Below are positions 9,661-32,340 of a stretch of 64,000 nucleotides of DNA, in pieces; the stretch's first letter is position 1; every line of letters starts with the position of its first letter. The notes under the pieces were generated by a model, which made no database searches, had not been told where the DNA came from, and saw nothing but the letters and a program-made list of their open reading frames with translations. The position numbers and the translations under genes are program-made. Source of the DNA: Hymenoscyphus infarciens (lineage: Eukaryota > Ascomycota > Leotiomycetes > Helotiales > Helotiaceae); assembly GCA_001414345.1 (NCBI GenBank), contig LLCB01000127.1:92342-156341 (forward strand), written 5' to 3'.

Positions 9661-10611
9661 GTGAGTTTGTGCTGTGCTTGAAAGAGGGAAGGTTGGAGGA
9701 GGAGACGTTTGGTGGTTGGTAGCTCATCGCCTGGAAAGGAGGAAGGGGGGATGGAAGGAATTATGGACGGCATGGTATTATATCCTTTAGTAAAGCAATG
9801 GAAGCAGGACAGATTCGGAGGAGAAAATTAATATATCTGATACACCTAACCTCAAGTATCAAAACTCATTCCGTCTATGCAGTAGAACGAGAAGAGGATA
9901 AACTAGACTGGGGAACCCCCGAAAAAATGTCTGCCTTGCTCTGGTTCCCATCGTTTCAACCAACCCATCCCCTTGAACGACTCGCTCCCAAAGTACGTGG
10001 CTATGTATATCAATTACACGCTCACCAAAAGAAAAAACCCCCCGAATCCTACGCCTACCTTTGGAAAAGCCTCAGAGAGGAGGACATGAAGAGCGGAACA
10101 TCCACTCAGGGAGCAATAACTCCGCAAGGCGAATTGTTATGTCTGCAAAAAGTGAGGCGACGAGGCGGCCGAAATGCAGTAAGCCTTGCACTCACAGATA
10201 GGAGGATATCCACTTCCGGGGCATTGCTTTTTGGCATTCGGCATATAAGGAAGGCGAGCCTCGTCCGTTTTCCCAGAAAATTTCACAAGTCTTACATTCC
10301 AAGATCCATGGTAGTTGTGAATGGGGTATCTCTCGGGTAAACCATAGTGAGGCTGTGCACTTACGAAGGGGCCTCCCACACGCCACCCAATTGGAAAAGA
10401 CGATAATTTAGGGAGCCAATGAGAAAGTAGAAAAATCCTTCTATTTATGTCGTTCTTCTGATGATTGGTTGCGGGATTATTTGTCGGTCTAATATGATTT
10501 CGTCGTATTTAATCAGGGGTCGAATAGACTCACAAAGCAGCTGCCAAAGTAGATGGTGTAACCTCTCATTGTGGCGAATTATCGAGATCGCAGCTGAATT
10601 ACCTTCGTAAG
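9661..10611. other. Gene-poor stretch before the first RIP block
   Basis: About 950 bp without a supported gene. Frames of 181 codons (plus, 9798-10340) and 80 or 64 codons (minus, 10137-10386) overlap each other. The minus frame contains Cys-rich pieces (ILECKTCEIF, PICECKAYC) that could be a small exon, but frame changes and lack of flanking exons prevent a call. Confidence 0.3.
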
Positions 10612-10613
10612 TA

Positions 10614-10800
10614 TGGTGGCTGTTAGCGACCCTCTCGGACATTTTAGAAAATCAACTTTTTAGCATTTCAGCGTCTAAATATATTATAATTCAACGTCCT
10701 CTACTACCACCTTTTATACTAAATTATACTTTAAAGTTAAGAGAATTATATAATAAGGCTATTTAATTATACTAAAATTATATATACTCGATTATTATAA
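10614..10800. repeat. Left TIR of the 10.6-13.1 kb element
   Basis: Inverted match to 12,900-13,077. The outermost part (to about 10,655) is nearly identical to its partner, for example GACCCTCTCGGACATTTTAG. Further inward the copies differ mostly by C/T and G/A changes, as RIP would leave. Confidence 0.75.
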
Positions 10801-12899
10801 AAGTTATAGTTATTAAAAAAAATAAAAATTTTAAAGTTCTTACTTTTATTTCCTCTACTACTACTACTTTTTATATACTCGTAGATTTATAAATCTTAGT
10901 AATATAATATAGCTATTATATTATATATATTTACTTCTATTATAAGCTTAGCTTCTTTATTAGTAGAAGAGAGATTATTTAATTAAACTAAGAGATAGTA
11001 TTTATATTTATAAAAACTAAGAAGAATATTCTTAAAAGAGTCTATAAATAGTTTATTATTAAAAGACTAAATTAGATATAAAGCGTTAATAGCTATAATA
11101 AATTATTCTTTTAAAGCTTTATAATAGCTAGCTATTTATAATTACTATTTATATTAGAAGAGTTTTAATTCTAAAACTAGTTAAATATATCTAAAACCTC
11201 GTTTATATTCTCTAAACTCTTATATATATATATATATCTCTTCTCTCTCTTGATATTAAAAAGAATAATCTATTCTTTATTTTAGTATTTAAGTCTATAA
11301 ATTATATATATTATTCTTTTAAATATACTTCTATTTATCTCTTTACTAGTAGTATATAATTAGTATTATTATAAGCTTCTAAATATATAGATTTATTACT
11401 ATCTACTTATATAAAATACTAAGATATTTATTAGCTTTTTTAAACTCTTTTTAGATTTTAGTTATAAAGTACTCTCTTTAATTAATATTTAAATATAGCT
11501 TTTTAAAAGTAGTATATTAACTTCTTTTATAGTATTAAAAGAAGTCTAAATTAAAAAATATTAAAAATCCAGATATATAATACTTTTAATAGAAACTAGT
11601 CTAATAAGTAATAGTAGTATATCTTAATTAACTAATAAACCTCTTAGTAAATAGAATACTTTAAGTATTATTTATATAAAAAAGTTTTTTTAATAGCTTA
11701 AAATATAATTAGATTATCTTATAATATATTTATATATATATTATCTATTATTAAAATAAAAAGTTTATTAAGACTTATAATATATACTCTACTTAAAAGT
11801 AATCTTAGTAATAGTAAGAAGTGTTTTAAGAGAAACTTAATAAGATATATAATTATAAAAATAATAATACTAGAAATTATACTTATAAAGCTAATAATAA
11901 ATTATAGTAGAAATTTTAAAAGAAAGTCTCTTTCTATAAAAATACTAAATATCTAAAGACTAATATTTATATAATATATAATAAGATTAAAACTAATTAG
12001 CTTAATACTAGTAATAAAGACTTTAATCTTTTTAATAAAATATAATTAGAGTTTAATATACTATATACTTATTTTTACTTATACTTTTATAACTAAATAT
12101 ATACTAAAAAGTATATTTACTAAATAAAGGAATTAGTTATACTCATAAAAGAGAAGAAACTAATTAATATTATATAGACGCTTATACTTAAGATAAAGAA
12201 AGAGAGAGATAATAAGCTTAGATATTATAATAGATATAATAGTATAAATTATATACTACTAGTAAAGAGATATATAAGAGTATATAGACTAGAATAATAT
12301 ATACTATTACTAAGCCTAATACTTAGAAAAAGAATAAATTAGCTTCTTTTATAATATAACTAAAGAGCTAGATAATACTAAAAGATTAAAAATAAACCTA
12401 ATCTAATATAGATAATAATAATATTTAGAAGCCTAACTATTATTATAGAGAGTATAAATAGAATATTATTATAAATATAGAGTTTAACTAGCTTTTATAA
12501 AATATTTAAAAGTAATATATTAAATTTAATAAGAAAGAAAAGAAGAAAATAAAAAGAGAGAATAATAGTAGAATATACTTTAAGCTTAGTCTTTTAGAAT
12601 AAGTTAATTTTAAGTTTCTAGAGTTTTACTAGAAAAGAGAGAAAGGCTAGTTTTTAGCTACTAATAAGACTATAGTTTATTAACTATATATACTTTTAGT
12701 ATATTTAAATAGCTTTAATATATAATTTAAAAGATAGTAGCGTAGTTATAGTAATATTTAGTATTAGAAGAGTATAAAAAGCCGATTTTCTAAAATGTCT
12801 AAGAGAGTTACTAATAGCTAGTATATAATAGTAGGTTCTAGAGTATATAGTATATAAGAGTAAGAATCTTAAATTCTATCTTTTTAACGACTATAACTT

Positions 12900-13077
12900 C
12901 TATACTAATCGAGTATATATAATTTTAGTATAATTAAATAGCCTTAATAAGTAATTCTAGTAACTTTAAAGTATAGTTAAGTATAAAAGGTGGTGGTGGA
13001 GTATGTTGAATTATAATATATTTAAGTGTAAAAAGTCGATTTTCTAAAATGTCCGAGAGGGTCGCTAACAGCCACCA
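12900..13077. repeat. Right TIR of the 10.6-13.1 kb element
   Basis: Inverted match to the left TIR, ending GTCGCTAACAGCCACCA. A degraded direct copy of the same end lies at about 12,660-12,830 (GATTTTCTAAAATGTC shared). Confidence 0.75.
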
Positions 13078-13079
13078 TA

Positions 13080-13656
13080 CTTGCTTTCCAGGTTGTTGCA
13101 CAACTTTCGCTCTTTTACGAGGGAAGGAGCAACATGGAAAAAGGGACTTGGCTCCCTTGGTCGTTTCTTCGAGGTCCCTGCTTCACACACCTGCGGCAAT
13201 ACTTGCTCTGTCATGCAACTTTTGCACTAGTAAGGTGGGAAAGAGTAATCTCAGCGAGAAAGCAACCAGCAGTCCACGCTACTGCTGAATGGAGTTTGGT
13301 AGGAGTGTGACATTTATGGATCTTAGGTACTCTTTGGCGGGCTTTAAATTTAGAGAGTAGGTAGGTCGTTCGTTCCCGGTTGTTTTTATTTTTCTCACGC
13401 CCGAACTCGTGCTGTGCATAGGAACGAAGTAACAGCGACAAGGCAAAATCCTGGGAATGCTACTACAAATGCTTCAAATGAGTATATCAAGTAGAAGGGC
13501 CGAGTGCAAAAATGATGACATTGAGAAAGCATGGGGAACGCCGCTGAGATTGGTTGTCACGTACTCGTTGGCATTGACGTGTTTTCGCTGATGGATTTTT
13601 GGTAGAGCTTTATGGGAAAGAAGGCTTGGTCTGTTTGTTTTCGATGTTTTAAATGT
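13080..13656. other. Non-RIP spacer between two TIR elements
   Basis: About 575 bp of normal composition. A frame continuing out of the right TIR (13049-13288) and a minus-strand frame (13211-13441) lack any domain. It looks like ancestral host DNA left between two insertions. Confidence 0.4.
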
Positions 13657-14503
13657 CGGTAATTGACACTTTTGTCCCCTAGAATATCCTCTAAATTACT
13701 CGAAAAGTGACTATTCTATTCTTTAAATAATACCCCTCAAAAAAGAGGGTATTCTAGTTAGAAAAGGGGGATATTTAAATTAGTCATTATTTACTATTTT
13801 TACTATATTACGCCACCTATTTTTTGGTGAATTAAAGCTAGTATCTTAAGATTATAACCTTTAATATATAGTATCTAATTTCCTTTGATTCCTTGAATTA
13901 TTTACCTTCTACTACTAATATACTAGCCTATAAGTATATTAAAAAGATGGCCTACTATACTATGGCTTCTAAATCAAAGGTTAGCTAGGAGTAGAATACT
14001 ATTAAGAAGGTATAAGAGAAGGTTTACTTTTTGCTAACTAATCGCGATTTATCCTAGTATATAGTCTCTTATATACGTATACTAATAACCGAGCTAAGAA
14101 TAGCGTTTAATATATCCTCTATAACTATCGAGATTACTACTTTAAAGCTATAACGTTAATAAATAATAAGATCTTATATAAGAGAGGCTATAAAGTGCTT
14201 TCGTAATAGACGTATCGCGTAGTTGAAAAGCAACGTAATAAGAGTATAAAAGTTCTTAAGAGTTAGTTTACGTAGTCGTAAGTAGGTTACTTTACTATAT
14301 TTATTTGTTTTTTAGTATATTAGTATAAGGAAACTAATAGATAGAGAAAAAGTATAAACTAACTTAAATATCCCTCTTTTCAAACTAGAATACTCCTTTT
14401 TTTAAGAGATATTATTTGAGGGATAGAACAGTTACACTTTAATTAATTTAGAGGATATTCTAGGTCTTTACGATTATTTAGAGGATAAAAGTGTCAATTA
14501 CCG
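13657..14503. mobile_element. Short RIP-degraded TIR element
   Basis: An 847-bp element with inverted ends: CGGTAATTGACACTTTT at 13,657 and its complement ending at 14,503. Weaker inverted similarity continues for about 150 bp, including paired GAATATCCTCTAAATTA blocks. The flanks TTTTAAATGT (left) and TTTTAATGT (right) look like a 9-10-bp TSD with one length change, which would fit a Mutator-like element; alternatively the TA inside GGTAATT is the duplicated target. The interior has a plus-strand frame starting MASKSK near 13,965, readable if TAG is taken as Gln or Trp, without a known domain. A related sequence occurs at 59.8-60.1 kb. Confidence 0.65.
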
Positions 14504-14990
14504 TTTTAATGTTAGAGTGGATTTCGAAAGCCGCCATCTTTTCTGCAGCGCAGTTCCGTGGTGGGAGTGAGTGTGAGAGGCGCGCCTTCGGTTTCCAGGT
14601 TTAGTCACGAGTTATAAGGCGAGCAAAGTTGTTGTCTTCCTTTTCTCGTCGTAGAACGTAAAAACTCTCCTTTCTGAGATTACATCGTTCGCAGTTGGCT
14701 TCATAGGCTCCGTGATACTATACTAGAGACGTGTTTACCATGTTACTTATAGTGAAATTAATTCCTTTCCAGATTAGGTGAAGTTCAGAAGTTCAGTCGT
14801 ATACTTGAAGCTTGTTTGAGGCTAATTGGTACTCCCCTTTCTTTTCTCCTAATGAGAATAAATTAATAAGAGAAATGAATAGGACGATCCTCTCACATTT
14901 CTTATCTCTCACAATATTCCGAAGAAGCTGTTAGAGGTGCCATGACTTATAGAACTTAAGAAAAAGCTTTGAAATTTCAGGGAATTTAAC
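14504..14990. other. Non-RIP spacer
   Basis: About 490 bp of host-like DNA between the 847-bp TIR element and the outermost element of the nested block. No frame or RNA gene is supported. Confidence 0.4.
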
Positions 14991-15539
14991 TATCCCTTCA
15001 GTTATCCTTACACCCCACGTATAGACGCGTTCAGCAGTCCGGTTTAAAACTACTCTTATTTAAGGTAGTTTTAGACTAAAATCTAGGTAGCTTCGAACTA
15101 CGATACTACTAAACCAGTTTAAGAGTGCTAAGATACTAAAATCTGAATTAGCGCCTCTTTCCACCTCTTTATTCACTCTCTCTCGCTCTCTTATATTCTT
15201 AATAACTTCTATCTTATAGAATTCTTTCTAACATAGCTAATTACTACTATAAATAGGTATATTATACTACTTACCCTAGCTCTTAGTTTAACGTAGATAA
15301 GGTAGACGCACTTAGTATAGAGAATAGTATAGTTTTCATAGTTTTCGTCTAGTTTTGAATATACTAAACTATACTACGGTTTTAGTACTATTAGTAGAAC
15401 TAAGTAATAAATTAATAAAACTAACTACGTAAACTATCGTAGTTTTGAAAACTATAAGTAAAAAGAGCTACTATTTTTAATCTAAAAGTAGCTCTTTAGT
15501 AGTAACTAAAGTATTAACCTCTCTTATAATTCTCTTATT

Positions 15540-17950
15540 ATCCTTCTTCTCTAATACTCTAATCTCTCTTTTAACCTTTATTATAGTATCTTCTATATTA
15601 AGTAAACTAAACTAAGACTTTAGATATATAAAAGCGTTTATTAGTAGTATACTAAGATAGTTCTAATAATTAGTAATTATAATTTTAGTACTAGAGAAGA
15701 GTCGCTCTAGCTTAGTAGACATAGTAGGTATTAAGAGTATATTAAGAGCTATTTAAGAGAGATTTAGATACTACTTTTATTAGATAGACTTAAGCTACTA
15801 TTTAATAGAATTTAAATATATTAGTATAATAAGAGAAGTATAATAGTACTTATATTCGTTAATAGTAAATATACTATTAATCTTATTAAAGATAGTATAA
15901 AAGAATAAGAAAAAGAGGTTATTATTGTTTTTTAAAGTAGTAGTAGTAGTAGTAGGATTATTAAGTAATACTAAGGTTATTAGATAATATTCCTTCTAGA
16001 GATTAAGTACTAAACCTTTAATAGAGTCTTAAAAAGCTTTTTTCTAATTCTTATTAATATACTACTATTTAAGACGTAGATTTAATATAAGTATTATAGT
16101 ATATACTAGTAAATCGTTAGATAATTAATAATATTTATTTAGCTTCTTCTAGTTTAAATTAAATATCTATAAGAGTATAAGATCTTTTATAAATATCCTT
16201 TTACTATGTTTAAAAGCTAAGAGCTAATAATCTATTATAATAAGTACTTCTAAAAGTATTAAATAATCTAACTTAAGTACTTTAATAATATACTTAAATT
16301 ATTTTAGAAACTTATATATAATATATATAATATATTAATCGTTATTAGAGAGTATATTATCTTTATTATACTTAAAGTCTTTCTTCTTTTTAAGAGGAAA
16401 GTACTTAAAATAAAGAAGTATATTATTTTTATAAATAAGCGCGCTATCTAATATATTATACTAAGAATTCTACTACGTACTATTATCTCTTTTAAGCTTT
16501 GATTCTATAATCTCTTTATATATTATAAGCTATTAAATACTCTTTTAAATATATACTATAATATTATAAAGTTTATTAAGAGGTCTGATTTTATACTAAT
16601 ATTTAATATAATCTATTATTACTTAAAGTACTAAAAGTTAATCGATATTATTATAATTAAAGGTGTCTTTAGTTATATAAAAGAGGAAGAACTAGATAGT
16701 AAGGTTAATAATATAACTTATATAATATATTTAATACTTAAGAGTAGTATAATTTAGAATTCTATATTTAAGATATATTTCTAAAAGATTAGTAAAGATA
16801 TTAAATAAAGTAAAAGAAGTATATACTTAACTATAAAAACTCTATTATTATATTATTATTTAAAGTATTATCTATCTAAAAGTATTTTAAATTTTATATA
16901 AAACTCTAATTCTCTAAAATCTTAATAATTACCTCTCTAAGATACTTATCTATATATAAGCTTTTAACTCTTTTAAGAGCTAATACTACTAATTAAAGCT
17001 TCTTATCTACTCTTATAAAATACACTAGTATACTAAATATTATAAGATTATTTAATAAGCTTTAGAGGTTATATAAGATATAGATCTTTAAGAGTATACT
17101 ATTAAGTAGATAGCGGATTCGAACTTTTTATATATTATATTAGTTTTAGATCTATCTATAGATTATATAATATATAAGTCGAAGCTAAACTAGTATATTA
17201 AGATTAAAATAGTATAAGAAGGCTTTAACTTTAAGAACCTCTACTAGTCTAAAAGCTAAGAAGTATATAATAATTACTTATACTTAGAGATATTTAAGTA
17301 CTTTTAGATTAAGTAAGATACTATTACTATAGCTAATTCGATGTCGCTTTTTAGTATTTTACTATACTAATTCTAAAGTAATCTTAATCTACTACTCTAT
17401 ACTATATACTATCTCTTAATAAAGTCCTTTGTCTAGAATCTTATAAACTTTAATTAGATGTTTTTATACGATTCTAGTATTTAATAAGACTTAGTACTAT
17501 TATATATAATACTTATAATTCTAAGAGTCTTTTTTTATTATTTAATATATATATTTAGTATTATAGTTCTATATCTAAGAGTATTATTACTCTATAGTTA
17601 ACTTTTATATACGTTTACGCTTTAAACTAGTAGATAAACTAGAAGAAACTAAATAAGACGAGTTAATAGAAGAAGACCTACTAGGTATATATAAAAGTGC
17701 TTATTCCTAGTTTATATCTTCGTCTCCTAGTTCGTTATTTAAAGTAGCTACTTTTTTAGTAATAGCGACGGCTTAGGCCTTAGCTTAGATAGAAGTAAAA
17801 GATATAAGAGGTTAGTATATTATTAGCGTAGGTTTAGAAACTCTTACTAACCTTTTAGAGAGTGTCTAGGCTTCTTTTAGTAGTATACTAATATTATTAT
17901 TATTATTTTAATAGTAGTATTACTAACGTTTAAAGTTTATTATAAGATAG
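15540..17950 (-). pseudogene. hAT transposase remnant (dimerisation domain recognisable)
   Basis: Read on the minus strand with TAA/TAG taken as Gln or Trp, the segment around 15,830-15,590 gives YLNLS, then ALNILLIPTMSTKLERLFSS and KIIITNYQN, the hATC dimerisation domain (family form: ALDILSIPAMSAEPERVFSS). This is the C-terminal end of hAT transposases, which insert with 8-bp TSDs, in agreement with the element ends. The upstream catalytic part should lie between about 15,900 and 17,950 but is too mutated for me to mark residues. Stops and C-to-T damage make it dead. Confidence 0.8.
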
Positions 17951-18026
17951 ATAGTAAAGGCCTAGCTAATAGAAAGCCTAGAAACTACTAAAATAGAGTC
18001 TAAAAGAGTTTAGTTTTCCTCTTTTC

Positions 18027-18077
18027 TATAATAGTACGAAATATATACTACTATAGAAGAGATATATAGAAGTACGT
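18027..18077 (-). repeat. OG left (3') LTR, first fragment
   Basis: Matches 53,090-53,145 of the right LTR (ACGAAATACACACTACTAC, RIP-changed). It is cut at TACGT (18073-18077) by the giant Gypsy element; the LTR resumes at 32,341. Confidence 0.8.
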
Positions 18078-18261
18078 TATAGTATAAGAGACAGATTATA
18101 GATTAGAAGCTTATAGCTAGGCCTGATGAAATACGTGAAAGTAATCTTTTATATAGTATAGTAATAAACGTCTAAAGAGAGAAGAGGAGAGTATAGAGTA
18201 CTTATAACTATCTATATCTATAGGTCTGCTACTAGTATAGTTATATATCCTTCCTATAATA
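18078..18261 (-). repeat. Gypsy1 3' LTR
   Basis: 184 bp, same length as the partner at 32,152-32,335; differences are nearly all transitions. Preceded by TSD TACGT. Confidence 0.88.
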
Positions 18262-18289
18262 TACCTCTCTTAAAAAAGCGTCTTCCTTT

Positions 18290-21200
18290 AAAGTCGTAAA
18301 AAGAGATACTAACTATAAGTTAATTTTAAGTCTTATTTAGCTCCTTATTCTTTAACTTTTCTCTAGTATCTTCTAATCTATTCTTATTCTTCTCTATATT
18401 ATCCTCTTCTTCTTTATCCTTTAATTTATTAAAAAACCTATTATTAGAGCCTAGTATCTTAGCTATTATTATTCCGTCGTAGATATTAATTCTATAGTAT
18501 AAAATAGCTAATTATTACTTCTTAGCTTCTATCTCTTAAGCCTTTAATTAATCTATAATAGTTATAATTAGTTATATAACCTTATAGTAGATACTGTCTA
18601 CTTAAATCTATAAGATATAGTTAGTAGTATATAAATCGTAACCGTTATCTTAGATAACCTAAGAAGTAGTAGAAGCGTTAGCTATATAAATAATAAGATT
18701 TAGTTATTTTAAAGTAATCTTTAACTTAATTAGTATATTTATAAGTAGATAAAAGAAAAATATAAAAGTATTTATAGTAAAATCGCTCTTAATAAGCTCT
18801 ATCTTAGCGCCTTTAAGAACAGCTTTATATACCTTATCTATAAGCTCTTTTACTAGTATATTAATAAGTTCCTCTTTAGAAAATAGATATTTAATACTAT
18901 ATTAAATCTATAAAGCTAGAATAATTAATTATACTCTATAATATAACTTATTTCTACTAATATTAGTTATAATATACTTATTAGAGAACTAGGCGTAGTA
19001 TAAGTTCTTTTAGAAAACGTCTAGCTTATTTATAAAGTTAAAGTATATAATATATAGCTTAAAGACCTATTTACTAGAGGTATTAGGCGTATAAGAGACT
19101 AGAGCTTTAACTTAAGAAGAAGTAGATTTAGTAGTTAGTATAGAAGCTTTTAGCTAAGAGGCATCGACGTCTAAGCTAGGTTTAAGCTCGGGATTTTCGA
19201 TCTCTACTTCTTAATTCTTAATCTCTATATTCTAATTCTTAATCTTTATATCCTAGATCTCGATTTCTATATCCTAAGTCTTAATCTCTATATTCTATCT
19301 AGAGGTAGTATTAGACTCTAGTAACCTATTATCCTTTTAGAGAATAATAGCTAAAGTAGTAATAGTTAGATTTATTTAAAAGTCTTAATTAATATTATAA
19401 AGTCTCTAGAAAGTATAATTACTTAGTTTATTAAATATTTCTAAGATCTATAATTTAATTATCTTTTTCTTACTATCTAAAAGTAGCTTCTATTTCTAGT
19501 CTATAGTATAGGTTTAATTATTAATCTTAAAAGCGATCTTATTTCCTAAGACTAGTAGTATAATTACTATATTTTAGAGAATAGTAGAGACTAAGTATAT
19601 AACAAATTACTTAGAATTTAGCTTAACGAATCTTATTAGTAGTAGTCTTTAGCTTAAATTACTAATAATTACGTTACCTTTTATAAGTACTATATTTATT
19701 TATATCTATAAGTATTTATATACCTCTATAAGAGCTAGTAGAATTTTAGACTATAGTAGAGGCTTACTTGTTATTACTAAGACGTCTCGATTATTATCTA
19801 CTATTATAGCTAGCTCTTTCTTATTATTAAGAGAAAGAACGTAGTTGTAATTACTAAGTTATATACTAAGTATACGTTGTATTACCTTTCTAGCCTTACT
19901 ATAGGCTATTCTATAGCTCTCTCTAACGTAATCCTCTAAACTATAAGTAGTATATTTAACTATATTTATATATATTAACTTATAATAGCTAAATTCCTTA
20001 TACTTTATATATTATATATATAAGTATTCTTAAAAGGTATACTTATAGTTATATTACTTATAGCTGTCTAGCTTTTCTATAATAATATAATATACTAATC
20101 TATAGTACTTATATATTTAGTTAAACATATTAGTACTATTATCTTTCTTATCCTTAGCGTAAAGGTATATATTCTTTCTATAACTAATATAATTATAAAG
20201 GTTATATTTTAAAGTCTTATTATTTATATAAGTAGCTTAAAGATAGCTATATTAACTATATCTACTATAGTTCTTAGCATTTACTATCTAAGTATTAGTA
20301 GTATATCTATAATCTTTTATATAATACTATAATTAGTAGATATAACTAATATTAAGGTGTTATATTATTTATATATTATCTTAGAAAATATTATAGCTAT
20401 ACAACTTTAGTTTAAGAATATAGTCTAAGATAAGTACTATAAGTAAGTAAACGTGTTAGGTAATCAATACTAATATATACTTCATATTATTACACTATTT
20501 AGAGATTTTTATACTAGTTAGAATACTAAGTATTAAGGCGTTAAATATTATATTCTAAGTAACTTTAGTAATATATAAGATATAGGCTAAGTTATTTAGA
20601 TATTTAAGGTTAATAACTATAGCTTTAACTTCTACTTTATAATAGTAAATATAGGTGTTCTTAAAGTACTTAATCTTATACTACTTAAGCTTTTATTTAA
20701 TATATTATATCTACTTATTACTAATATTAATATAGTTCTTATTAAAGATAGAAGTACTTTTAGCTTTAATATTAGAAGTACTACCTTATACTTATATTAT
20801 AATAAATTAAGTATTAAGATTAAAAATTTCCTTATTAACCTCTTTTATTATATAATTACTTAGAAGTAAGCTATAGTAGATAGTAGTATTAATTATTTTA
20901 CTATAGTAGTATTCTTTATTAATAAATTTCTAAATAATACTATTATATATTTAGCTTTAATAGTTTAAGTATATAAGATAATACTTACTATACTTATAAT
21001 ACTCTAGAATAGTATTATTAAGATACTTTATACTAGGATTCTAGGCTTCCTTGTTTATCTTTAAGACTAAATAATAATATATCTATTTACTATTACTATT
21101 TATATTATATATTTTAAACTTAAGACTAGTAGCTAAGGCGATTATAATAGCTAGATTTATTATACTAGTCTTATTTATACTAAATCTAAATAATTTACTT

Positions 21201-24200
21201 ACCTATTTTTAGGCTCTTAATTATAAGGTAATTACTAGTATAGTTATAATAATATCTACTTCTATAATAACTTTTTATATAGCCTTATTAAGAGTATCTA
21301 TATAAGCTAAAAGCCTTAAGTCTAGGTTATTAGAGTTATAGAGGACTTCTTAAGTATATATTTTAAAAGCTTAGAATTCTATGACCTCTTTAGCTAATCT
21401 ACTAATTAGATCGAAGATATACTTCTAAAAGCTAAACTTCTATATATATACTAGATATCTTTAATCTCTTACCTTCTTATTTATCTTAATCTTTTAAATA
21501 GCTTTATAGATAAAATGTTTAATAAAACTATATAATAGAGCTAATATGTCTTTAATATAAGACTTAAAGTTCTCTAGTATATAGTAATTAAGAAGCTTAT
21601 TCTTTTCTACTAATAAACTACTAAGATAAATAACTATCTTCTTAACGTTAAGTAATAAGAAGATCTTATCTATTTTTTTAGTAAGATTATCTACTCTCTT
21701 ATTTATAGAATATATAAGAAGGACTCGGTTCTTTATATTATTAGAATTATAGTAACCTAATATAAAAAGAGTTTCTATCTAATCTATCTTATAAGATACT
21801 ATATAGCCTTAGATACTAATAAATAGTATATATAGCTCTTATAACTTCTTATACTTAATCTAATAGTTAGAATTAAACTTTATAATTACCTTCTAAATAA
21901 ATTTATCTAAGAAAGGCTTATTATAATACTTAGTAAAAAAGTCTATAGTTTTCTAAGGAATTAGAGAGTTAAAGTTTATAAATAGTTTTATATAGTATAT
22001 AAAGGTATAAGATAGCTTATTCTTCTTTACTAATACTCTTTTATTATTAAGACTTTAAATAATATTATTTTAGAATTATATTAAAATCTTAAAAGTAATC
22101 TTAATCTTATATATAGGTTTTATTCTATTAAAAGTGTTTATAAAATAGGTAAGAAGTATATTAGTAATATTTAATATTAGAATATTAAAATAAGTAGTAA
22201 CTTATTTACTATTAAAGCCTTACTATAGTAGATCCTTTCTAGTATATAAGATAATTAAGATTATATTTAGAAGAGATAGTATATTAGTAATAATTCCTAT
22301 AATAGTAGCTCGTTACTCTTCTATCTATTATTCTAGTAAGTTCTTTATCTTAACCTTTTTCTTTTTATTACCTTTAATAATTATCTTACTACTATCTAAA
22401 CTAAGGATCTATTCTCTAGTATTATTATTAGATTTATTCTTATTATCTAAGACATTTTTACTAAAATAATACTTATTCTTAGTATTAGGTCCTTTATATT
22501 TAATATATAGTATAGTCTTAAGATTAAAGAATTAGACTTTAATATAATCGTCTTTTTTAAGATTCTTATAAATATAGTACTATATATTAATAGTAGTAAT
22601 CTAGGCCTTATCTCTATTATAATTATATTATAATAGCTTTCTATCTAAGCTAAGAATATAAGAAATAGCTATAGTAAATTCATTTAATTACTAATTTATA
22701 GCTTCTTTAGCTATAATCTTAAACTTATTATAAATAATATAGGCTAGAAGTATATATATATACTTATAGTTATAAAATATAAAAATATAATATAAGTATT
22801 TATCTATAACTCTTAATAGTATCTATTCTAGAATCTAGAATAGATTACCTATATCTAATTAGCTAGAAATAAGCGTGTTTTTAATTTAAAAGTTATTAAA
22901 GTTCTTTTTCTTATTAGCTTCGATTTTAGTACTAATAAGAGAAAGGTTACTATAGTAATTATTAATAATAAATATAAATTTAAGAATACTCTTTTCTATC
23001 TAAATAGTCTTAACTTTATTAATAAATTATTATATTATTTAATTATAGTTTAGATTAATTATAAAAGAGATATTAGTACTAGTAATATTAATTATATCTA
23101 TCTTAATATTAATAGTAATAATCTTTATACCTTCTAGCTTCTTAAAGTCTAGTTTTAAGAAGGTAGCTAGTAAGCTATATTTATTAAAGTCTTAATATAT
23201 AAAGTTTTTAATAATATAAACTCTTTAATTAAGATAAGTCTTAAAGTAAGTATAGTTAGAGATATTAAATCTCTCTTTATAAGAGACGTCTTTATTATCT
23301 TATATTCGCTTACTATTAAGAGTAAGCTCTATATTAAAGTAGATATAAGGTTCTAAGTACTAGAAATAAAGTCGTTTTAAAGAGGCTAGGATACTATTAT
23401 TACTAGATAACTCAACTTAGTTAAAGAGATAGTATAGCTTACTATTTATAGCGAATATAGTCTTAAATTTAGCTCTTATATTTATAACTTTAAGAATCTT
23501 TTATTATTTCTTAAGTAAGATATATTCTAGTTAGATAAATCTTAACTTCTTACTCTTTTATTTATTATAAGTAGTAACTATTTTATTCTTAGGTTTAGAA
23601 TTTCTACTAGTAGCTTTAGCGTTCTAACTATTAGTAATAGTAGTAGGTTTATTACTAGTAGAGTCCTAACTACTAGTAGTAGTAGTAGGTTCTTTTATAT
23701 TATTACTAGTAGAGTCTTAACTACTAGTAGTAATAGTAGGTTCCTTTATATTATTACTAGTAGAGTCTTAATTGCTAGTAGTAGTAGTAGGCTCTTTTAT
23801 ATTATTATTAGTAGAGCCTTAACTACTAGTAATAGTAGTAGGTTCTTTTATACTATTGCTAGTAGAGTCTTAATTACTAGTAGTAGTAGTAGGCTCTTTT
23901 ATATTATTATTAGTAGAGTCTTAACCTCTAACAACAATAGAGAGTGCTTTTAATATATAGCTAGCCTTAATAATAGCTCTTTTATTAGACTAGATTATAG
24001 TAGTAGACTTGTTAGTAGCTAAAGTAAATTTATATTTATTATTATCGAGTTTATAAATAGGTAGAGAGATAATAGTACTTAACTTATTATACTAAGTTAT
24101 TATAATAACTATATTATAGATAATATTATAAGTATAGGCTTTACTATTAATTAAGGTACTAGTAGTAGTATCTATTATAATTCGTTGTTTTAAGAATAGT

Positions 24201-24950
24201 ATTATATTACTAAGAGTAGAAAGGTTATTATTACTAACTATAAAGGTCTTAACTTTACTTTTAAAGTCGTTGTTAAGACTAAGTATACTAGAGAGTATAT
24301 TTTTAAGAAGTTAGTAGTTGTTTATTATAGTAGAGTAAGCTATAAAGTTAATCTTATAATAGACCTAGTTTAGATTACTTATAAAGACCTATTTAGTAAA
24401 GTAATCGCCTACTATATTAATAATAGAAGGTTAATCTAAGAATATATTAGAAGTATAATTACTAATTAAGGTGTTTAAGGTTTTATAAATTAATAGATTA
24501 AAAGGAATATAATATAAAAGACTTAAGTATATTTATATTAAAAAGTTGAATTTATTATAGTATAAGGTTAATAAGATAATAAATTCCTTAGTAGAGTATA
24601 ATAATATTAAGGCTAAAAATTAAGCACTAACTAATTAGCGTTATATAAATTTAATATTACTACTAAATAGTAAAAGTAAATTTCTAATAAATAATTAAAA
24701 TTAATATAATATATAAAATTTAAACGATTATAGCTTATAAGAATAAATAAATAAATAAGGAAGTACTTACTTCTTTAAGAAAGGCTTATAAGCCTTTTAC
24801 TAGGAATAGTTATAAATACTATAGGTATAGATACCTATAGATCTTACTAGTTTACTCTTCTTAAGAGGTATAACTAGTACTAAAACGTAGTTTAACGTCT
24901 TTTTAGACGTTACTCTATTATAAGAAGGCTTTATTCTATTATAAGAAGGC
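18290..24950 (-). pseudogene. Gypsy1 extra long frame (ORF2), unknown function
   Basis: Downstream of pol and on the same strand, segments I read (18.3-19.2, 21.3-21.6, 22.3-23.95 kb) translate without frame change between neighbouring segments, interrupted only by TAA/TAG of the kind RIP makes from CAA, CAG or TGG. The product would approach 2,000 residues. Features seen: a Ser/Thr-rich tract of 17-residue repeats (23.66-23.92 kb; unit about DSTSNNIKEPTTTTSS plus one), low-complexity Asn/Gln/Pro-prone stretches, and a highly charged C-terminus (QLKAQEIEAKKQQ, then KLKDKEEDNIEKNKNR) that ends just before the 3' LTR. The antisense reading of the charged end gives hydrophobic nonsense, which supports the minus strand. 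I recognise no domain. It could be an env-like or accessory ORF, a captured gene, or a second element whose ends I missed. Confidence 0.5.
23610..23926 (-). repeat. 51-bp tandem repeats (17 codons) inside ORF2
   Basis: The marker GAGTCTTAA (with small variants) recurs at 23661, 23712, 23763, 23814, 23865 and 23916, an exact 51-bp period over five full units, with a partial unit before. The period is a multiple of three and encodes a Ser/Thr-rich unit. Units differ mostly by transitions. Confidence 0.9.
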
Positions 24951-24975
24951 TTTTACTCTAATATAAGAAGGCTTT
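24915..24975. repeat. Short tandem repeat (about 21 bp, three copies)
   Basis: TAAGAAGGCTTTA recurs at 24921, 24942 and 24964. It lies between the integrase end and the extra frame of Gypsy1. Confidence 0.6.
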
Positions 24976-25299
24976 AGACTTAGAGTATATATTCTTCTTT
25001 CCTTTTCTTTTATAAGCTAATATAACCGATTTAGCTTAATCTTATATTATTAATACTAGCTTCTAAGTGGTTTTCTTATAGCTTAGCTACTTAATCTTAT
25101 AATATAATTAGTATTACTCTTTTAAAGGTTTATATATTTCTTATCTTAGGATATTCTTAATAATAAATCTTTTCTCTCTATTAATAGTAATTAGTCTTAG
25201 CTTAGGTTAAGAATAAGTATATAAATTATTATTTACTAGTTCTAGGTATTTAATAGATATAATAGAGTAAATCTTAAGCTAATTTAGTAGCTTGATTTT

Positions 25300-28200
25300 A
25301 AAGACGAGGTTATCTACTAACTATATAATCTTAAAAGGTTCTAATCTTTAAAAAAATAGCTTTATATAATTTTAAAGATAGTAACTCTTATTTTATTTTT
25401 TTACTATTTATAAGTATACTATACTATTAAATTTTAGAAGAGTATATTTATTATTATAGTATATCTTTATATAAGCTTAGGCTATCTTAATTAACTATTC
25501 TACTTAGTTCTATAAGGATTTATAATAAGTTAAGAAGTCTAGAATATCCTCTCTAGTATTAGTACTAAGCTCTATCTTTATATCCTAGCTATATAGTAAG
25601 GAGAAGAGCGTTACTCTAGTAGAAGTATTAATAAAAGAGTTAAGTAATAGCTAGATAAAAGGTATAAGGTCCTTCTAGGTTAACTAGTTATATACTCTAC
25701 TAATAGTATATTATAAAGTATAGACTATAGTTTAATTAGTATACTCTATCTAACTATTACCTATTAAATAGTATATAGTATTAAAGCTTAGATTAACTAT
25801 TATAAGCTTGAAAAGCTTATACTAGAACGTTAATTAAAACTTAAAGTTATAATTAAATATTATACTATTAAGTAAACTCTAATCTATATAGATAAATTTA
25901 AAGTATTAAATAGCTTCATTCTTAGTAGTATTAATATCTTTACCTACTAAGAGCTTTACTACTTTTAAATACTTATAGATAATAGTAAGTATCTTATTAT
26001 TACTTTAGATAAAGATTAGAAGACTATTTATAAAATCTAATAATAGTACTTTTAAAAGTACTATAAGATGTTCGATTAGCTAAAGAGACCTCTAAAATAG
26101 GGTATTAGAAGACTTTACTTATTAATATACTAGATAGCTCTTTATATATTTTATAATCTTCTAATATAATCTAGAATAGAAGACGAAACTTTTTATATAT
26201 TAATAGATCCTTTTAATTCTAAAGTAGCTCTTATTATTATAAATAAGAGATAAGAACTTTCTTAGACATACTTTTAGTATATAAAGAAGCTTATTAAAGA
26301 ATAGTAGCTTCCTAGTAAGCTTAAAATAAAAGCTTTTAAGAGTAGTTATTAGTACTTTAGTATATTTACTATTTATATATTATTTTAATATCTAGGTAAA
26401 TATAAGCTTTAGAGATTAGTCTAAGAGTAGCTGTTTTATAACTTCTAATAGTAACTCTTTAGATATAGATAAGGTTATAACTTTAGATAAGAAAGCTTAT
26501 ATAAAATATATATTAGATTTAATTATAGCTTTCTTTTAAGATAATAGTTTTAGCTTATTATAAGGTAATCTTAATAGAGCGTCTATATTAATATAAGTCT
26601 TACTTATATAGTAAATAATATTTATATACTATTTATAATAAGATAAAAACAATTACTAGTTTTATAGCTAGATTAACCTTTTACTCTTAATAAGGCTGTT
26701 ATTCTTAAATATATTAGTAATAGCTTAGTAATTAGTAACTATTATAAAATCGTTACTATTTAGATATTATAATAACTTTTCTAAAGCCTAAATAAGTACG
26801 CTAGTCTCTAACTCTATTAGCTAGTATCTTTCCTTTATTAGTAATAATAATTTAAAAAGGTATAAAATAGAATACTTAACTTCTTTATTATCTATTTAAT
26901 ATAATACTACTTTATAATCTATCTCTTTACTTCTATCTATATATAGCTTAAAAAGCTTTATAAAGTCTAGAAATACTAGTATAGGTATAGAGTATAGCTT
27001 ATCTTTAAGCTTTTCTTATATAGATTTACTATTATTAAGTAATTTAGTTAACTTTAAGTCTATTATAAAGGACTTTATTATACGTCTTAAATAGGTGTTA
27101 TATTCTTTACTAGAAATTAAGAAGTCTTTAAACTCTAAGGTTTTTAGCTTAATTAATAGTATTATAATAGCTAAGTAATAAGTAATAAAATTATAATAGT
27201 ATTTAAATAGCCTAAGGCTCTTTTCTAAGTTAGATAAGATATAAAGAAACTTTATTACTCTTATTACTTTAACTTTATCTTTTATTATATATAGACTATA
27301 TTATAATATTTAATAGCTTAATACTTATAATTCTAATTAAGTAAAGTAGTATTTTAATAGTAAAAGAGTAACCTTTAACTTTATAAGATAGTAGAGTACT
27401 TACTTTAAATAAACTAGATATTCTTCTAAGGTTTTTAAAAAGATAATAGTATTATTAATAAATATATATATAAATTACTAGAGTATATCTTTAAACGTGT
27501 CTTCTATATAATATTAGAAGAAGGTAAGTAATATAGCTAGCCTTATAGTATTAATAGTTAGTCTTTCTTAGTCTTTATAAGGTATTATAAAGATCTACTT
27601 CTATCTATTCTTAAGATAGGTTAATTACTAGAAAAAGCTTTTTATTATATTAAGTATAGAAAACATAGTTATACTATATATTACTTATAGTATGTTATTT
27701 TACTTAGGTAAGAGCTAAGCGTTTATATATAGTTTAGTATTAATTCTTTTTAAATCTACTACTATATAAGGTTTTCTATTACGCTATACTATAAATACTA
27801 GTATAGAGGCTAATAAAGGTTTCTCTAAAAGTATCTTTTTAATAACACCTATCTTAATTAATAGGTTAATAATACTATTTATTACTTCCTTATCTCTTTT
27901 TAATAGACTATAGAGAGCTTATTTTAAGTCTTTAATATCTACTCTCTTTTTAAAAGAGATAAGTATTTTAATTCTATTATTAAAGTAACTTAACTTATTA
28001 TAGAATAGCTTAGCTTTATTTTAGATAACGTCTTTAACCTTAGCTTAATATTCCTTACTCTACTCTAGTCTAATATTAGTCTAGGAAATATTAATTAGAT
28101 CGTTAATTAGTTATATAAGATAAAGCTAACTATTAAGATGTTTACTTTTAAGCTATTCTAGTATTAGAGGTAGTTCTTTAAATATATTAATAAGGTTAAA

Positions 28201-28500
28201 GTATATAGAGTAATTAGCTAATAGTAGCTTATCTAATAGCTTAAGAAATCTTAGTAACTATTCTTTTATAATCCTTATAGAAGTAGTACTAAGGTTTACA
28301 AATATAAGAGGTTTTTAATCTTTATTAGTAATTATATATATAAGGCTTTTAAATTAGTTTAGTACTAGGCTACTTTTCTAATATAGCCTAACTATATACT
28401 CTTATACTAATACTAATAACTTCTTACTATAATAAATACTAATATTCTAGCTTTATATAAGATTAATAATTATATCTTCTATTATATAGATTATTATATA
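25300..28500 (-). pseudogene. Gypsy1 pol remnant (RT, RNase H, integrase)
   Basis: On the minus strand, reading RIP stops as Gln or Trp, 27,560-27,435 gives a segment like RLAILLTFFQYYIEDTFKDI followed by IYIYLLIILLSF (family: FGLTNAPATFQ, then VVYLDDILIFS). This is the palm of a Ty3/Gypsy reverse transcriptase with the catalytic YLDD position RIP-changed. Downstream, 26,200-26,080 reads FYSRLYQKIIKYIKSYLVY, matching the HHCC zinc region of Gypsy integrase (FYWPGM, then YVKSC). The order RT then integrase is that of Gypsy, not Copia. Borders are approximate. Confidence 0.75.
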
Positions 28501-29499
28501 CTTAAGCTCTTTCTCTTCTTAATCTAATAAGTAGGAGATATAGAATTTATAACTATAGTAATCTAGATAATCGATACTATGTCTTTTTATTTAATAGAAG
28601 TTTAGGTGATTTAGCTTTAGAAACGAAGTATTTATTAGTATATTATAGTCTAGCTTATTAATAATATAGAATTCTACTTTAAAGAGGAACTCTTACTTAG
28701 AAGTATTATAGATAGTAAAGAGAATCTTTATAAAATTTTAAAGCTTTTAAGTACCTTTCTTAATATTTAAAAGGTTAACTATGTTTAGTTCTTCTTCTAT
28801 CTTAATATATAAGAAGAAATAATCTATTATATACTTAGTTATAAGATTTATACTTAAACTAGTGTTTATATAAAATTTAATATCCTAGCTTAATAAAGTA
28901 GTAAGAACGCATTTTATACTTATATAGTAGTAATACTAAGTACTATTTATAAAGTACTTACTATCGCTCTTCTATTTTATATTAAAGACTATAATCTTTT
29001 TAGCTCTTTTATATAGTTAATTAGTATATAATAGCTTACTAAAGAACTCTATACTATTTAATAAGGTGTCTATTCTAATTATCTCTTTAATTAGTATATC
29101 TAGAAGTAATAAGGTTACTAAGCCCTTTACTAATAGATTTATAGAAGATAGAGGAAGTAGAGTAGTAGAAGGAGGTATATATATTATATCTACTTTCTAT
29201 AGTATAAGAGAATTAGATAGAGTAGCTAATATTAGTAAAATACTAGGTATAAATAGAATAGGTGATATTTTAGCTAGATAGCTTATTTTAGATAGTTTAT
29301 TATTTTTAAATTTTTTTAAGCTTTCTAGTACTAGGACTAGTAATAGGTCTAGATTAGGTAATAGTAAAGATATATAATTTTCCTATTATATTATAATATT
29401 AATATTAGATAACAAGGTTATAATAGGAATTCTTATAAACGGCTTACTACTTTAGAGCGACTACTATATTCGTTTTCTAAATCTAAATTATCTAAACTA

Positions 29500-32140
29500 A
29501 TATATAGATTAGTCTTAAATCTATTTAAAGTATTAACAATTATCTAATATATATACTTATCTATAACTACTAGGTCTAAAGGTTTAGCTTTTTTAAAGTA
29601 TACTAAGACTATAGCAGTGCTTATAAGTTACTATAACTGCTTTTAACTATTCTTTAAAGAGAGTTAAAGTAGCTATTACTATTACTACTATCTTTATATA
29701 AATTAAGTAGCTACTTATAGTATAAATCTTAATTATATAGACTATATAAGCTATATTAGTAGAGGCATCTAGTAGTTTTAAGCGTATAGAGAATTAAAAG
29801 GCTATCTACTAAATTACTAAGACTAGGCTACTAGTAGGCTAAATCTAGGCTATTTAAATTATTATAGAATAAAGAGATTAAAGAGTTACTTATCTCTACT
29901 ATCTTAATAATTACCTCGAAGGTTTTAACTATATCTATTATTATATCTCTTAAAGTTATTATTATTATATCTCTTAAAGTTATTATTAACTCTCTTATTA
30001 TCTCGCTTCTATTCTATATAATTCTCCTAGTTACTCTTACTTAATCGACCTTTACTATATAATTTAAACTTCTTAAACTTTTTCTTTAGTAATTTATTTT
30101 CCTTACTAAGTATCTTAAACTTCTTATTTTAAATAGTCTAAGATACTTATACTATAGACTCTATAGTATATACCTTCTTCTTAAGAAATTCTAGAGTATT
30201 ACTAAATAGCTTTAGTATAATTATAGAGCCTAGTATAGGGTCGAGTCTAGTATAAATTCTATATACTAAGTAGTCTTTATCTATAAACTTAGCTTTAACG
30301 TAGAGTAATTACTTTTTTACTATATATACTTAAAGAGAGTATTAGTCTTCGAATTTAAACTAAAATTCTTCCTTATTAGCTTAGACAAGTAGTATTAATA
30401 CGTCTTTTTAAAACTGTTTACTTATCTAGCTTCTAAGCTTATTATAGTCTAAAAGTATTTAGGTCTTAGTATTTAGTATAAGTCTATTATACTAGACCTA
30501 AGTATTATCTATTAGAGCCTAGAGTATAAGGCTTAATATTATCTTCTTACTATAGATCTATATAAATCCCTTAACCTAGCTAAACTATAAAGTAACTAAA
30601 GTCTTACTATTATATTTAATATCTCTTATCTTAAGATATAGTTAATATTATTATTAGTTATTAGAGTTCTATTACTTATATTTATAAAAGGATTTATAAG
30701 AGGATTAATAAGATAATTAATAAGAGGTTCTAGAAGGAGATTTACTAAGACGAGGGTTTACTTATTCTAGTCTAGATTAGAAATAGGTAAGAAGCGTAGT
30801 AAATTTATCTACTATAGCTAGGCTATCTAGCGATTTAAACAGTTATACTATACTAGCTATAAGATTATTTAAGAGGTTATCTCTTAGTAGGTTAAATACT
30901 AACTCTATGTCTTCTAAGTTCTTATCTATAATAAGTAGTTAAAGATTTATATACCTAGTAATGTTCTTAGCTACCTTATTTACTATAAAATCGATAATTA
31001 TAGTATCTCTTTACTAAAGCTGCCTAGTATATAGTACCTTAGATTCTACTATTATAATAGGTCTACTACTTAAGAGTAGAGTTAAGAGCTTATTAATTTT
31101 ATTAAAGAAGTCTAAATTAATAAACTCTTAATCTAATAGAAGAGGCCTTAATTAATATAAAGTAAAAGCTATCTAAGGTATAAGATTAAACGTAGTAGTA
31201 ATATCTACTAGTTTAGAGGCTTTAGAGTAAGTATTAGAGCTAGGGATTAGGCTAGAGTAACTTAGTATAGAGCTAGGAGAGAATAGTACTATAGGTTCTT
31301 CTCTAATTATAATAAAGTTTAAAATATTATCTCTACTAATAATAGTTAAGTCTTTAAGAATACTAAAGGCTTTCTCTTCTTAATATTTAGTAATTATAAT
31401 ATCTAGATTATTATTAAGATTCGCTTCTTCCTTATCTCTTCTAAGTACTAGTCTCTAATATATAAGCACTCTAATCTTATTAAGTCTACTAGAGCTTACA
31501 AAAACAGGACTAGAGGCTCTTAGAATATAAGAGTCAACTAGTATAATAGATATATCTTATAAATAGTATATATAAGGAGCTAATAAGGTTTATAAGGCTT
31601 ATAAAGCTAGAGTACTCAGCAGAGCTAGAGTACTTAGCAGAGCCTTAAAGAGCTTAGAAAAGAGGTTTTTAGGTATAATAGATCGTTCTAATAGTGTTAA
31701 GGATAGGGCCGATTCTACTAGAACTCTTAGAGTAGGCTCTTTTATATATCTACTATTCTTTTAGTATCTATCTTATTTGTTATAGTAGCTACTATATTTG
31801 TTAAGAATTTTTTTAGATTTAGGTTTTACTAGTGCTTCTCCTTTCTAAGGCTTTCTTATATAAATTATAAGTAATATATATATATATAGAGTAGAATAGG
31901 TATAAGAGAGATATTCTTTGTCTTTCTTACTAACCTACTAGAGATCTAAGAGACGGTTATACTTATTACTAGATAACGTATATACTAATAGCTAGATTCT
32001 AATTAAGTATTTAAATTATAAGATTAGGAAGTAGATAAGAGAAGGAGAGGTAAGAGTTATAGGTTATAAGTTATAATATAGTTAGTAGAAGATAGAGGCT
32101 TAATAATTTTAAAGAGATTATATATAGTTTAAATTTAGAG
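29500..32140 (-). pseudogene. Gypsy1 gag-like region
   Basis: The segment between the 5' LTR and pol. Around 30,060-29,900 the minus strand reads a basic, Asn/Arg-rich repeat (RYNNNNFKRYNNRYS) that would suit the nucleic-acid-binding end of a Gag. No intact zinc knuckle was seen. A small tandem repeat (AGAGCTAGAGTACT) lies near 31,600-31,640. Assigned mainly by position in the element. Confidence 0.45.
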
Positions 32141-32151
32141 TATTACTACTA

Positions 32152-32335
32152 TATAGTATAAGAGATAGATTATAGATTAAGAGCTTATAGCTAAGCCTAA
32201 TAAAATACGTAAAAGTAATCTCTTATATAGTATAATAATAAACGTCTAAAGAGAGAAGAGAAAAGTACGAAGCACTTATAACTATCTATACCTATAAGTC
32301 CGCTACTAGTGTGGTCACGTGTCCTTCTTATAATA
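32152..32335 (-). repeat. Gypsy1 5' LTR
   Basis: 184 bp; keeps GTGGTCACGTGTCCTTCTTA where the 3' LTR is more RIP-changed. Followed by TSD TACGT. Confidence 0.88.
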
Positions 32336-32340
32336 TACGT

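What the first reader, a model, noticed from the sequence alone, without database searches (positions are those of the whole stretch)
18290..24950. Unrecognised long frame (ORF2) downstream of integrase in the giant Gypsy
About 6.5 kb on the pol strand reads as a continuous protein in all segments I translated, with RIP-type stops only, and ends in a charged coiled-coil-like tail next to the polypurine tract. Known extra ORFs in this position are env-like; this one shows no signal peptide or membrane pattern in the parts read. It is the best candidate here for an undescribed component of a retrotransposon.
Basis: partly seen in the sequence, partly recalled or inferred. Interest (0 to 1): 0.8.

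Follow-up and report, generated by a model that had tools for sequence, protein, structure and literature searches.

The report
Giant fungal retrotransposon's huge extra gene
A 14-kb fungal jumping element, now wrecked by the fungus's own mutation defence, carries beside its usual genes a third, roughly 2,040-codon gene that is shared by relatives and faintly resembles RNA/DNA-unwinding enzymes, an uncommon extra part for this kind of element.

Summary
The frame is real and belongs to the element. Window 18078-32335 (minus strand) is one 14,258-bp LTR element with matching 5-bp target duplications. 15 of 20 aligned copies keep it unbroken by indels; the 13 indels shared by copies inside it are all multiples of three. 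ORF2 DNA lies beside each of 29 long pol copies listed, and two diverged relatives keep the frame at 43-44% protein identity. Stops are almost all TAA/TAG, but 93 of 142 stop sites are stops in every row compared, so "RIP-type only" is unproved. Family, structure and protein searches found nothing. In a RIP-aware scan, superfamily-1 helicase motifs I+Ia rank first of about 86,000 positions and recur in a diverged relative; motif III appears in another. But motif I is atypical, most other motifs fail, and genuine UPF1-type helicases score far higher. I favour a divergent helicase-like accessory protein (about 0.5), not filed as a family member.

The parts
18078..32335 (-). Complete LTR element, 14,258 bp
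   Evidence: LTR pair and 5-bp flanking duplication; homology ends at 18077-18080 in 6 of 7 copies compared and at 18046 in one
32336..32340 (.). Target-site duplication, 5' side
   Evidence: identical 5-mer on both flanks
18073..18077 (.). Target-site duplication, 3' side
   Evidence: identical 5-mer on both flanks
32152..32335 (-). 5' LTR, about 184 bp
   Evidence: 85% identical to the 3' LTR
18078..18261 (-). 3' LTR, about 184 bp
18262..18271 (-). Purine-rich tract abutting the 3' LTR (putative PPT)
   Evidence: sequence read; function inferred
25363..29349 (-). pol frame (RT, RNase H, integrase in Ty3/Gypsy order as read by eye)
   Evidence: translation; only the RNase H domain passes Pfam; ends chosen by eye
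26674..27018 (-). RT_RNaseH domain of pol
   Evidence: PF17917/PF17919
29400..32000 (-). 5' part of the element (gag expected here; no domain recognised)
   Evidence: conserved in copies next to pol; gag identity inferred from position only
18326..24440 (-). ORF2: conserved extra frame, about 2,038 codons
21755..21823 (-). ORF2 segment aligned with SF1 motif I (QG...KT-like, without the canonical glycine before K)
21668..21727 (-). ORF2 segment resembling SF1B/UPF1-type motif Ia
   Evidence: best of 85,998 positions scanned; rank 1 in 16 of 16 rows; kept in L052
21071..21115 (-). ORF2 segment aligned with SF1 motif III
   Evidence: weak here, strong in the diverged relative L053
19943..20113 (-). 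Region with regularly spaced TAY codons that could derive from Cys/His pairs (possible zinc-binding region)
   Evidence: read; not tested
23617..23925 (-). 51-bp (17-residue) tandem repeats inside ORF2
   Evidence: copy number varies in steps of 51
19200..19297 (-). 21-bp (7-residue) tandem repeats inside ORF2

Best explanation
Shown: ORF2 is a genuine protein gene of this Ty3/Gypsy-type element, about 2,040 codons, under protein-level selection before RIP destroyed the copies, with diverged relatives in the same genome. Inferred: it encodes a large multi-part accessory protein whose central part (about residues 870-1345) is a very divergent superfamily-1 helicase-like domain, nearest the UPF1-type (AAA_11/AAA_12) group in motif Ia, followed by a possible Cys/His zinc-binding stretch and charged repeats. 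Proposed role (speculative): it binds the 14-kb genomic RNA or the cDNA intermediate. It would either unwind it to help reverse transcription or, if the atypical P-loop means weak ATP hydrolysis, act as a UPF1-like decoy that shields an RNA with about 7 kb downstream of the pol stop from nonsense-mediated decay.
For: Gene: frame kept in 15 of 20 aligned copies; shared indels inside the frame 13 of 13 multiples of three and third-position excess of transversions; ORF2 beside 29 of 29 long pol copies listed, same orientation; two diverged relatives in the same frame, E 7e-29 and 4e-29, 44% and 43% identity, transversions 66/71/101 by codon position. Helicase-like: motif Ia block 52.3 against a next best of 32.7 among 85,998 positions, rank 1 in 16 of 16 rows; I+Ia at the right spacing 49.8, against 24.2 for the next separate site, best at the same place in 16 of 16 rows (scores 9.9-50.7), and 50.5 in L052; spacing I-Ia 32 (references 26-31) and Ia-III 204 (references 107-274); motif III best hit in L053 falls on the aligned position, decoy fraction 3.5e-5; ordered-block z 3.2-5.0 in the four copies tested, 5.5 for the window copy in a repeat and 2.5 for the 16-row mean, against a distant true SF1 helicase (T4 Dda, simulated RIP) at 2.3 and 4.0, four unrelated proteins at -1.5 to 0.4 and the other five frames at 0 to 1.8.
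Against: Six true AAA_12-type helicases put through simulated RIP score z 21-32 with most motifs at rank 1; ORF2 as a 16-row mean scores z 2.3, below the highest of 100 shuffles (120.8 against 107.6), and its motifs II, III, IV, V, Va and VI rank 6-25. In L053 motifs II and IV are not found either. Whole-profile alignment was weak: 1 of 500 shuffles at or above, fitted p 0.005, and with single sequences several decoy frames scored as high or higher. With permissive gaps z was 0.7-5.9 over 16 rows. Single-sequence alignment to UPF1 or the NFX1-like protein was not significant. Motif I lacks the canonical glycine. Pfam finds no helicase although it still finds simulated-RIP UPF1 and the NFX1-like protein; PF13087, PF01443, PF13604 and PF05970 hit no ORF2 copy. 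AlphaFold2 gave pLDDT 30.7. The motif reading began by eye, so it is partly post hoc. The relatives are homologues, so their motif Ia is not independent evidence. No expression data.
Confidence: 0.5

Rival explanations
1. ORF2 is a real, conserved accessory protein of an unrelated and unknown fold; the motif Ia resemblance is coincidental and inherited by the relatives.
For: Controls show that ordinary AAA_12-type helicases would be seen clearly; most motifs fail; no family match.
Against: Motifs I+Ia at correct spacing are the best of about 86,000 positions, and the motif I and III scores are higher in diverged relatives at the aligned positions.
Confidence: 0.36
2. ORF2 is a captured host gene (for instance a host SF1 helicase) carried passively.
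For: Gene capture by LTR elements is known (PMC6431247, passages); the host has SF1B helicases with AAA_12.
Against: No significant similarity to the two host helicases compared; diverged ORF2 relatives exist in the genome, one on the contig of a diverged pol, so any capture is old and retained.
Confidence: 0.06
3. ORF2 is an env-like gene.
For: Position between pol and the 3' LTR, sense strand.
Against: About 2,040 codons is very long for an env (recalled); no env-type family match, although RIP weakens that test.
Confidence: 0.04
4. The open frame is an artefact of AT-rich, RIP-mutated DNA, or a nested transposon that inserted later.
For: RIP biases stop frequencies by frame.
Against: Protein-level conservation at 43-44% identity in the same frame, codon-position pattern, indels in threes, one TSD-flanked unit, present beside 29 of 29 long pol copies listed; the only two PIF1 hits in the genome lie elsewhere, which argues against a Helitron.
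Confidence: 0.04

Closest known systems
[quoted passage not shown] passages seen)
   Different: Fungal host; about 2,040 codons; not recognisably env-like; RIP-destroyed
Boty/BcGypsy elements with brtn (Zhao 2011, seen only as cited in PMC8365987 and PMC7264820; passages of these two seen)
   Same: Fungal LTR element with an extra gene between pol and 3' LTR
   Different: brtn is antisense to pol; ORF2 is sense; sequences not compared here
Insect LINE and LTR retrotransposons carrying viral SF1 RNA helicases (PMC5563155, PMC6338049; passages seen)
   Same: Retrotransposon-encoded helicase-type accessory domain (if the helicase reading of ORF2 is right)
   Different: Those domains are viral-type with all motifs and fused to retrotransposon proteins; ORF2 is a separate giant frame with an incomplete motif set, nearest UPF1-type in motif Ia
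Giant Gypsy-like elements (Ogre, Burro; PMC6431247, passages seen)
   Same: Unusually long internal region with extra coding capacity
   Different: Here the extra length is one long frame after integrase, LTRs are only 184 bp, and the host is a fungus

Membership tests
Ty3/Gypsy LTR retrotransposon | LTR pair with short target-site duplication | tested here: met
   184-bp LTRs, identical 5-bp flanks
Ty3/Gypsy LTR retrotransposon | RT-RNase H followed by integrase (Gypsy order) | tested here: inconclusive
   RNase H found by Pfam; RT upstream and integrase downstream only read by eye, because RVT_1 and rve were not found in this RIP-mutated copy
Ty3/Gypsy LTR retrotransposon | Polypurine tract next to the 3' LTR | tested here: met
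   purine-rich tract abutting the LTR
SF1B UPF1-like helicase (AAA_11/AAA_12) | Pfam AAA_11/AAA_12 match | tested here: not met
   none, while simulated-RIP UPF1 and the NFX1-like protein are still found; the simulation is milder than the real element
SF1B UPF1-like helicase (AAA_11/AAA_12) | Canonical Walker A (GxxxxGK[ST]) | tested here: not met
   QG and K[T] spacing kept but no glycine before K in the copies aligned or in L052
SF1B UPF1-like helicase (AAA_11/AAA_12) | Motif Ia | tested here: met
SF1B UPF1-like helicase (AAA_11/AAA_12) | Motifs II and III | tested here: inconclusive
   III strong only in L053; II weak in ORF2 and L053
SF1B UPF1-like helicase (AAA_11/AAA_12) | Motifs IV, Va, VI | tested here: not met
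   low block scores; a recalled generic V+VI pattern ranks 4 of 85,854, judged post hoc
Helitron/PIF1 helicase | PIF1 family match in ORF2 | tested here: not met
   only two genome hits, both elsewhere
Viral SF1 helicase (PF01443) | Family match in ORF2 copies | tested here: not met
   three weak hits, none in an ORF2 copy
env-like ORF | Signal peptide, fusion and transmembrane segments | not testable with these tools
   RIP rewrites the relevant residues; no intact relative found

The most novel reading that the evidence does not exclude
A fungal Ty3/Gypsy lineage encodes its own giant UPF1-like helicase mimic with an atypical P-loop, a self-made factor that handles or shields its long RNA, for example against nonsense-mediated decay.
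Probability: 0.25. Interest if true: 0.75.

Novelty: new variant of a known kind. Interest (0 to 1): 0.52.

Why it matters
Extra ORFs of LTR elements are seldom assigned a biochemical role. A conserved frame of about 2,040 codons greatly enlarges what this fungal Gypsy lineage encodes. If it is helicase-like, it would show a retrotransposon supplying its own RNA-handling factor and give a testable link to RNA surveillance in fungi. The RIP-aware scan with calibrated controls also shows one way to weigh homology in RIP-ruined genes without mending them.

Tried and rejected
Plus-strand reading of 10500-18290: no domains; the element is on the minus strand. Pfam on ORF2 as window copy, 16 rows and pieces: nothing except one row with PRT6_C at E 0.079. 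PDB by profile: nothing. Protein database with a region of one copy (E up to 0.01) and with a 16-row alignment (E up to 0.1): none of 7,982 and none of 7,996 scored candidates. Viral contigs with ORF2 and with pol: none confirmed. AlphaFold2 on residues about 818-1375: pLDDT 30.7, useless, so no fold search was made. Canonical UPF1-type helicase: rejected by calibrated controls. Single-sequence RIP-aware alignment to two host helicases: not significant. Whole-profile alignments with several gap settings: weak or uninterpretable (one search used insertion positions that did not match its profile). Gap settings and the move from whole-profile to block scans were chosen while working, so the block statistics are exploratory. 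Env-like, host-gene, Helitron and artefact readings: see rivals. In-print check: the listings of eight searches of the open library (titles and starts of abstracts, capped lists, one of them 15 of 771) named no fungal Gypsy with a helicase-like ORF; subscription papers and unlisted hits are not covered.
Full report
Setting. The window is part of an unnamed 65.6-Mb assembly in 742 contigs. Host-like flanks have 44-46% GC; the middle, about 10.5-53.5 kb, is AT-rich and its repeats have CpA and TpG at 0.07-0.16 of expectation, the signature of repeat-induced point mutation (RIP). The closest named UPF1 protein in the database is 92% identical and from Aureobasidium melanogenum, so the host is probably a dothideomycete fungus (inference).

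The element. In 6 of 7 copies compared, homology ends at window 18077-18080 (18046 in the other). An LTR pair of about 184 bp at 18078-18261 and 32152-32335, flanked by an identical 5-mer, defines one minus-strand element of 14,258 bp. Pfam recognises its RNase H domain. RT and integrase can be read by eye in the expected Gypsy order, but RVT_1 and rve profiles miss them, which shows how much RIP hides. RVT_1 does match 150 places elsewhere in this genome, all listed with internal stops (150 of 323 candidates scored), so this pol may also be divergent.

Is the frame real? Between pol and the 3' LTR one minus-strand frame has the lowest stop density of the six, but density alone is weak evidence under RIP. 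Better evidence comes from copies. Twenty copies besides the window were aligned. Sixteen were translated, of which 15 have a length divisible by three over 2,007-2,068 codons and no frame-breaking indel inside; C404 has one. The other four (C259, C70, C113, C346) were left out and each carries a private frame-breaking indel. So 15 of 20 keep the frame. Inside the frame the 13 indel classes shared by two or more copies are all multiples of three, while private ones are 6 of 12; 8 of the 13 lie in tandem arrays whose unit is itself a multiple of three. Shared indels that are not multiples of three occur only outside it, at about 24748, 24485 and 18207. Transversions, which RIP does not make, favour third positions (42/52/77; by hand, chi-square 11.4), though not in the stretch with the 21-bp repeats (13/12/13).

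Boundaries. A 1-bp indel at about 24485 is shared by 14 of 20 copies, and a homopolymer near 24748 varies by 1 or 3 bp between copies, so the conserved frame probably starts near 24440, not at 24950. It runs to about 18326, just before the purine-rich tract. Inside are 51-bp and 21-bp tandem repeats and a charged C-terminal tail with 39-bp length steps in some copies.

Stops. Across 16 rows there are 142 stop sites: 93 are stops in all rows, 33 show CAA, CAG or TGG in some row, and CGA is a frequent alternative, suggesting that CpG is also converted to TpA here. RIP saturation (CpA 0.06 of expectation) makes the invariant stops unsurprising but does not prove their origin.

Part of the element. 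Pol DNA gave 29 places of 3 kb or more, the window's own included (40 of 72 candidates scored). Beside every one of the 29 lies ORF2 DNA in the same orientation (40 of 71 candidates scored); one of these has only 392 bp of ORF2, and one lies about 5.4 kb away instead of 2 kb. Against this, C30 has pol pieces of up to 1.75 kb with no ORF2 in the list, and one ORF2 place (C318) has no listed pol. A diverged pol family at 67-70% DNA identity appears at five places, and diverged ORF2 pieces at 67-79% on six contigs; of the five diverged pol places only C261 also has a listed ORF2 piece, same orientation, at about 10.5 kb. Two ORF2 pieces were fetched (L052 from C1, L053 from C261). They encode ORF2 relatives in the ORF2 frame with 44% identity over 143 residues (E 7e-29) and 43% over 163 residues (E 4e-29), with no frameshift. 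Over 301 codons transversions fall 66/71/101 by codon position (by hand, chi-square 9.0). The frame was therefore under protein-level selection across this divergence before RIP.

What it encodes. Searches by ordinary means found nothing: Pfam (one row with PRT6_C at 0.079), PDB, the protein database, viral contigs, and AlphaFold2 with pLDDT 30.7. To judge these negatives, host proteins were put through simulated RIP. Pfam still found UPF1 (3e-36), the NFX1-like helicase (4e-19) and DUF6594 (6e-20), barely ADH (0.0014), and missed an HSP70 fragment. The simulated genes kept 64-71% protein identity and 28-34% GC, milder than the real ORF2 at 21.5%, so the negatives are only moderately informative.

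Helicase lead. By eye, residues of about 870-1345 resembled a superfamily-1 helicase. I tested this with profiles of UPF1-type helicases (host, plasmid and database sequences) and a forward RIP model. Single-sequence and whole-profile alignments were weak. Block scans were clearer. Motif Ia scored 52.3 at 21727, best of 85,998 positions over both strands, next 32.7; it ranked first in 16 of 16 rows. Motifs I and Ia at proper spacing scored 49.8, against 24.2 for the next separate site, best at the same place in 16 of 16 rows (9.9 to 50.7), and 50.5 in L052. In L053 motif III peaked at the position aligned with ORF2, decoy fraction 3.5e-5, while motifs II and IV were not seen there. L052 and L053 are homologues, so agreement at Ia shows conservation rather than independent evidence; the higher I and III scores there are new information.

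Calibration against the lead. Six genuine AAA_12-type helicases under simulated RIP scored z 21-32 with most motifs at rank 1, whereas the ORF2 mean scored 2.3, with motifs II, III, IV, V, Va and VI at ranks 6-25 (z 2.5). Four single copies gave z 3.2-5.0. A distant true SF1 helicase, T4 Dda, scored 2.3 and 4.0; four non-helicase proteins scored -1.5 to 0.4; the ORF2 frame of the window copy scored 5.5 and the other five frames 0 to 1.8. ORF2 is therefore not an ordinary UPF1-type helicase. It is compatible with a distant SF1-like domain with an atypical P-loop, or with a chance resemblance kept in its relatives. I put the helicase-like reading at about 0.5.

How it might work (inference). A protein encoded after pol could be made from a spliced or separate transcript; no data bear on this. 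If helicase-like, it could aid reverse transcription of a 14-kb RNA. If ATP hydrolysis is impaired, it could act as a decoy for UPF1, since an RNA with about 7 kb after the pol stop should invite nonsense-mediated decay (principle recalled). Morozov and colleagues discuss similar roles for SF1 helicases captured by insect retrotransposons (PMC5563155 and PMC6338049, passages seen).

Known relatives. Extra ORFs between pol and 3' LTR, sense and antisense, are a known kind of feature (PMC7264820, passages). In fungi the brtn gene of Boty elements is antisense (PMC8365987, passages; Zhao 2011 seen only as a citation). PMC3248453 (passages) mentions complex fungal elements with additional inserted domains and has no occurrence of 'helicase' in its main text. 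Giant elements with extra ORFs are reviewed in PMC6431247 (passages). The listings of my searches named no fungal Gypsy with a helicase-like extra ORF; they are capped listings of open-licence papers only.

Verdict. Real, conserved and, as far as these searches go, undescribed extra gene of a giant fungal Gypsy; identity unresolved, with a specific and testable helicase lead. New variant of a known kind.

Noticed in passing
G000 C225, C251, C261, C337, C97:95895: A second, diverged lineage of the same Gypsy (pol 67-70% DNA identity); C261 also carries diverged ORF2 pieces about 10.5 kb from its pol, roughly 6 kb more than in the window.
   Followed up: partly
window about 24485-24750: Two groups of copies differ by a shared 1-bp indel and a 15-bp deletion just upstream of the conserved ORF2 start; a homopolymer there varies by 1 or 3 bp.
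   Followed up: partly
window 24910-24976: 21-bp tandem repeat between pol and ORF2 whose copy number varies among copies in steps of 21.
   Followed up: no
window 18326-24440, stop sites: CGA is a frequent alternative codon at stop sites, suggesting RIP here also turns CpG into TpA.
   Followed up: no
window 32400-53500: Further RIP-mutated repeats, with direct repeats (for example 32918/34208, 41232/43808, 35234/48812), not identified.
   Followed up: no
window 7997-9400 and 61255-63330: Host genes flanking the AT-rich block: an HSP70-like frame and a DUF6594 protein.
   Followed up: no
G000:C44:116855-117465: AAA_12 helicase gene piece with an internal TAG; it also gives the best Viral_helicase1 hit in the genome.
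   Followed up: no
window 19943-20113: TAY codons at a roughly regular x2/x13 spacing in ORF2, as would remain if CxxC pairs had been RIP-mutated (read by eye).
   Followed up: no
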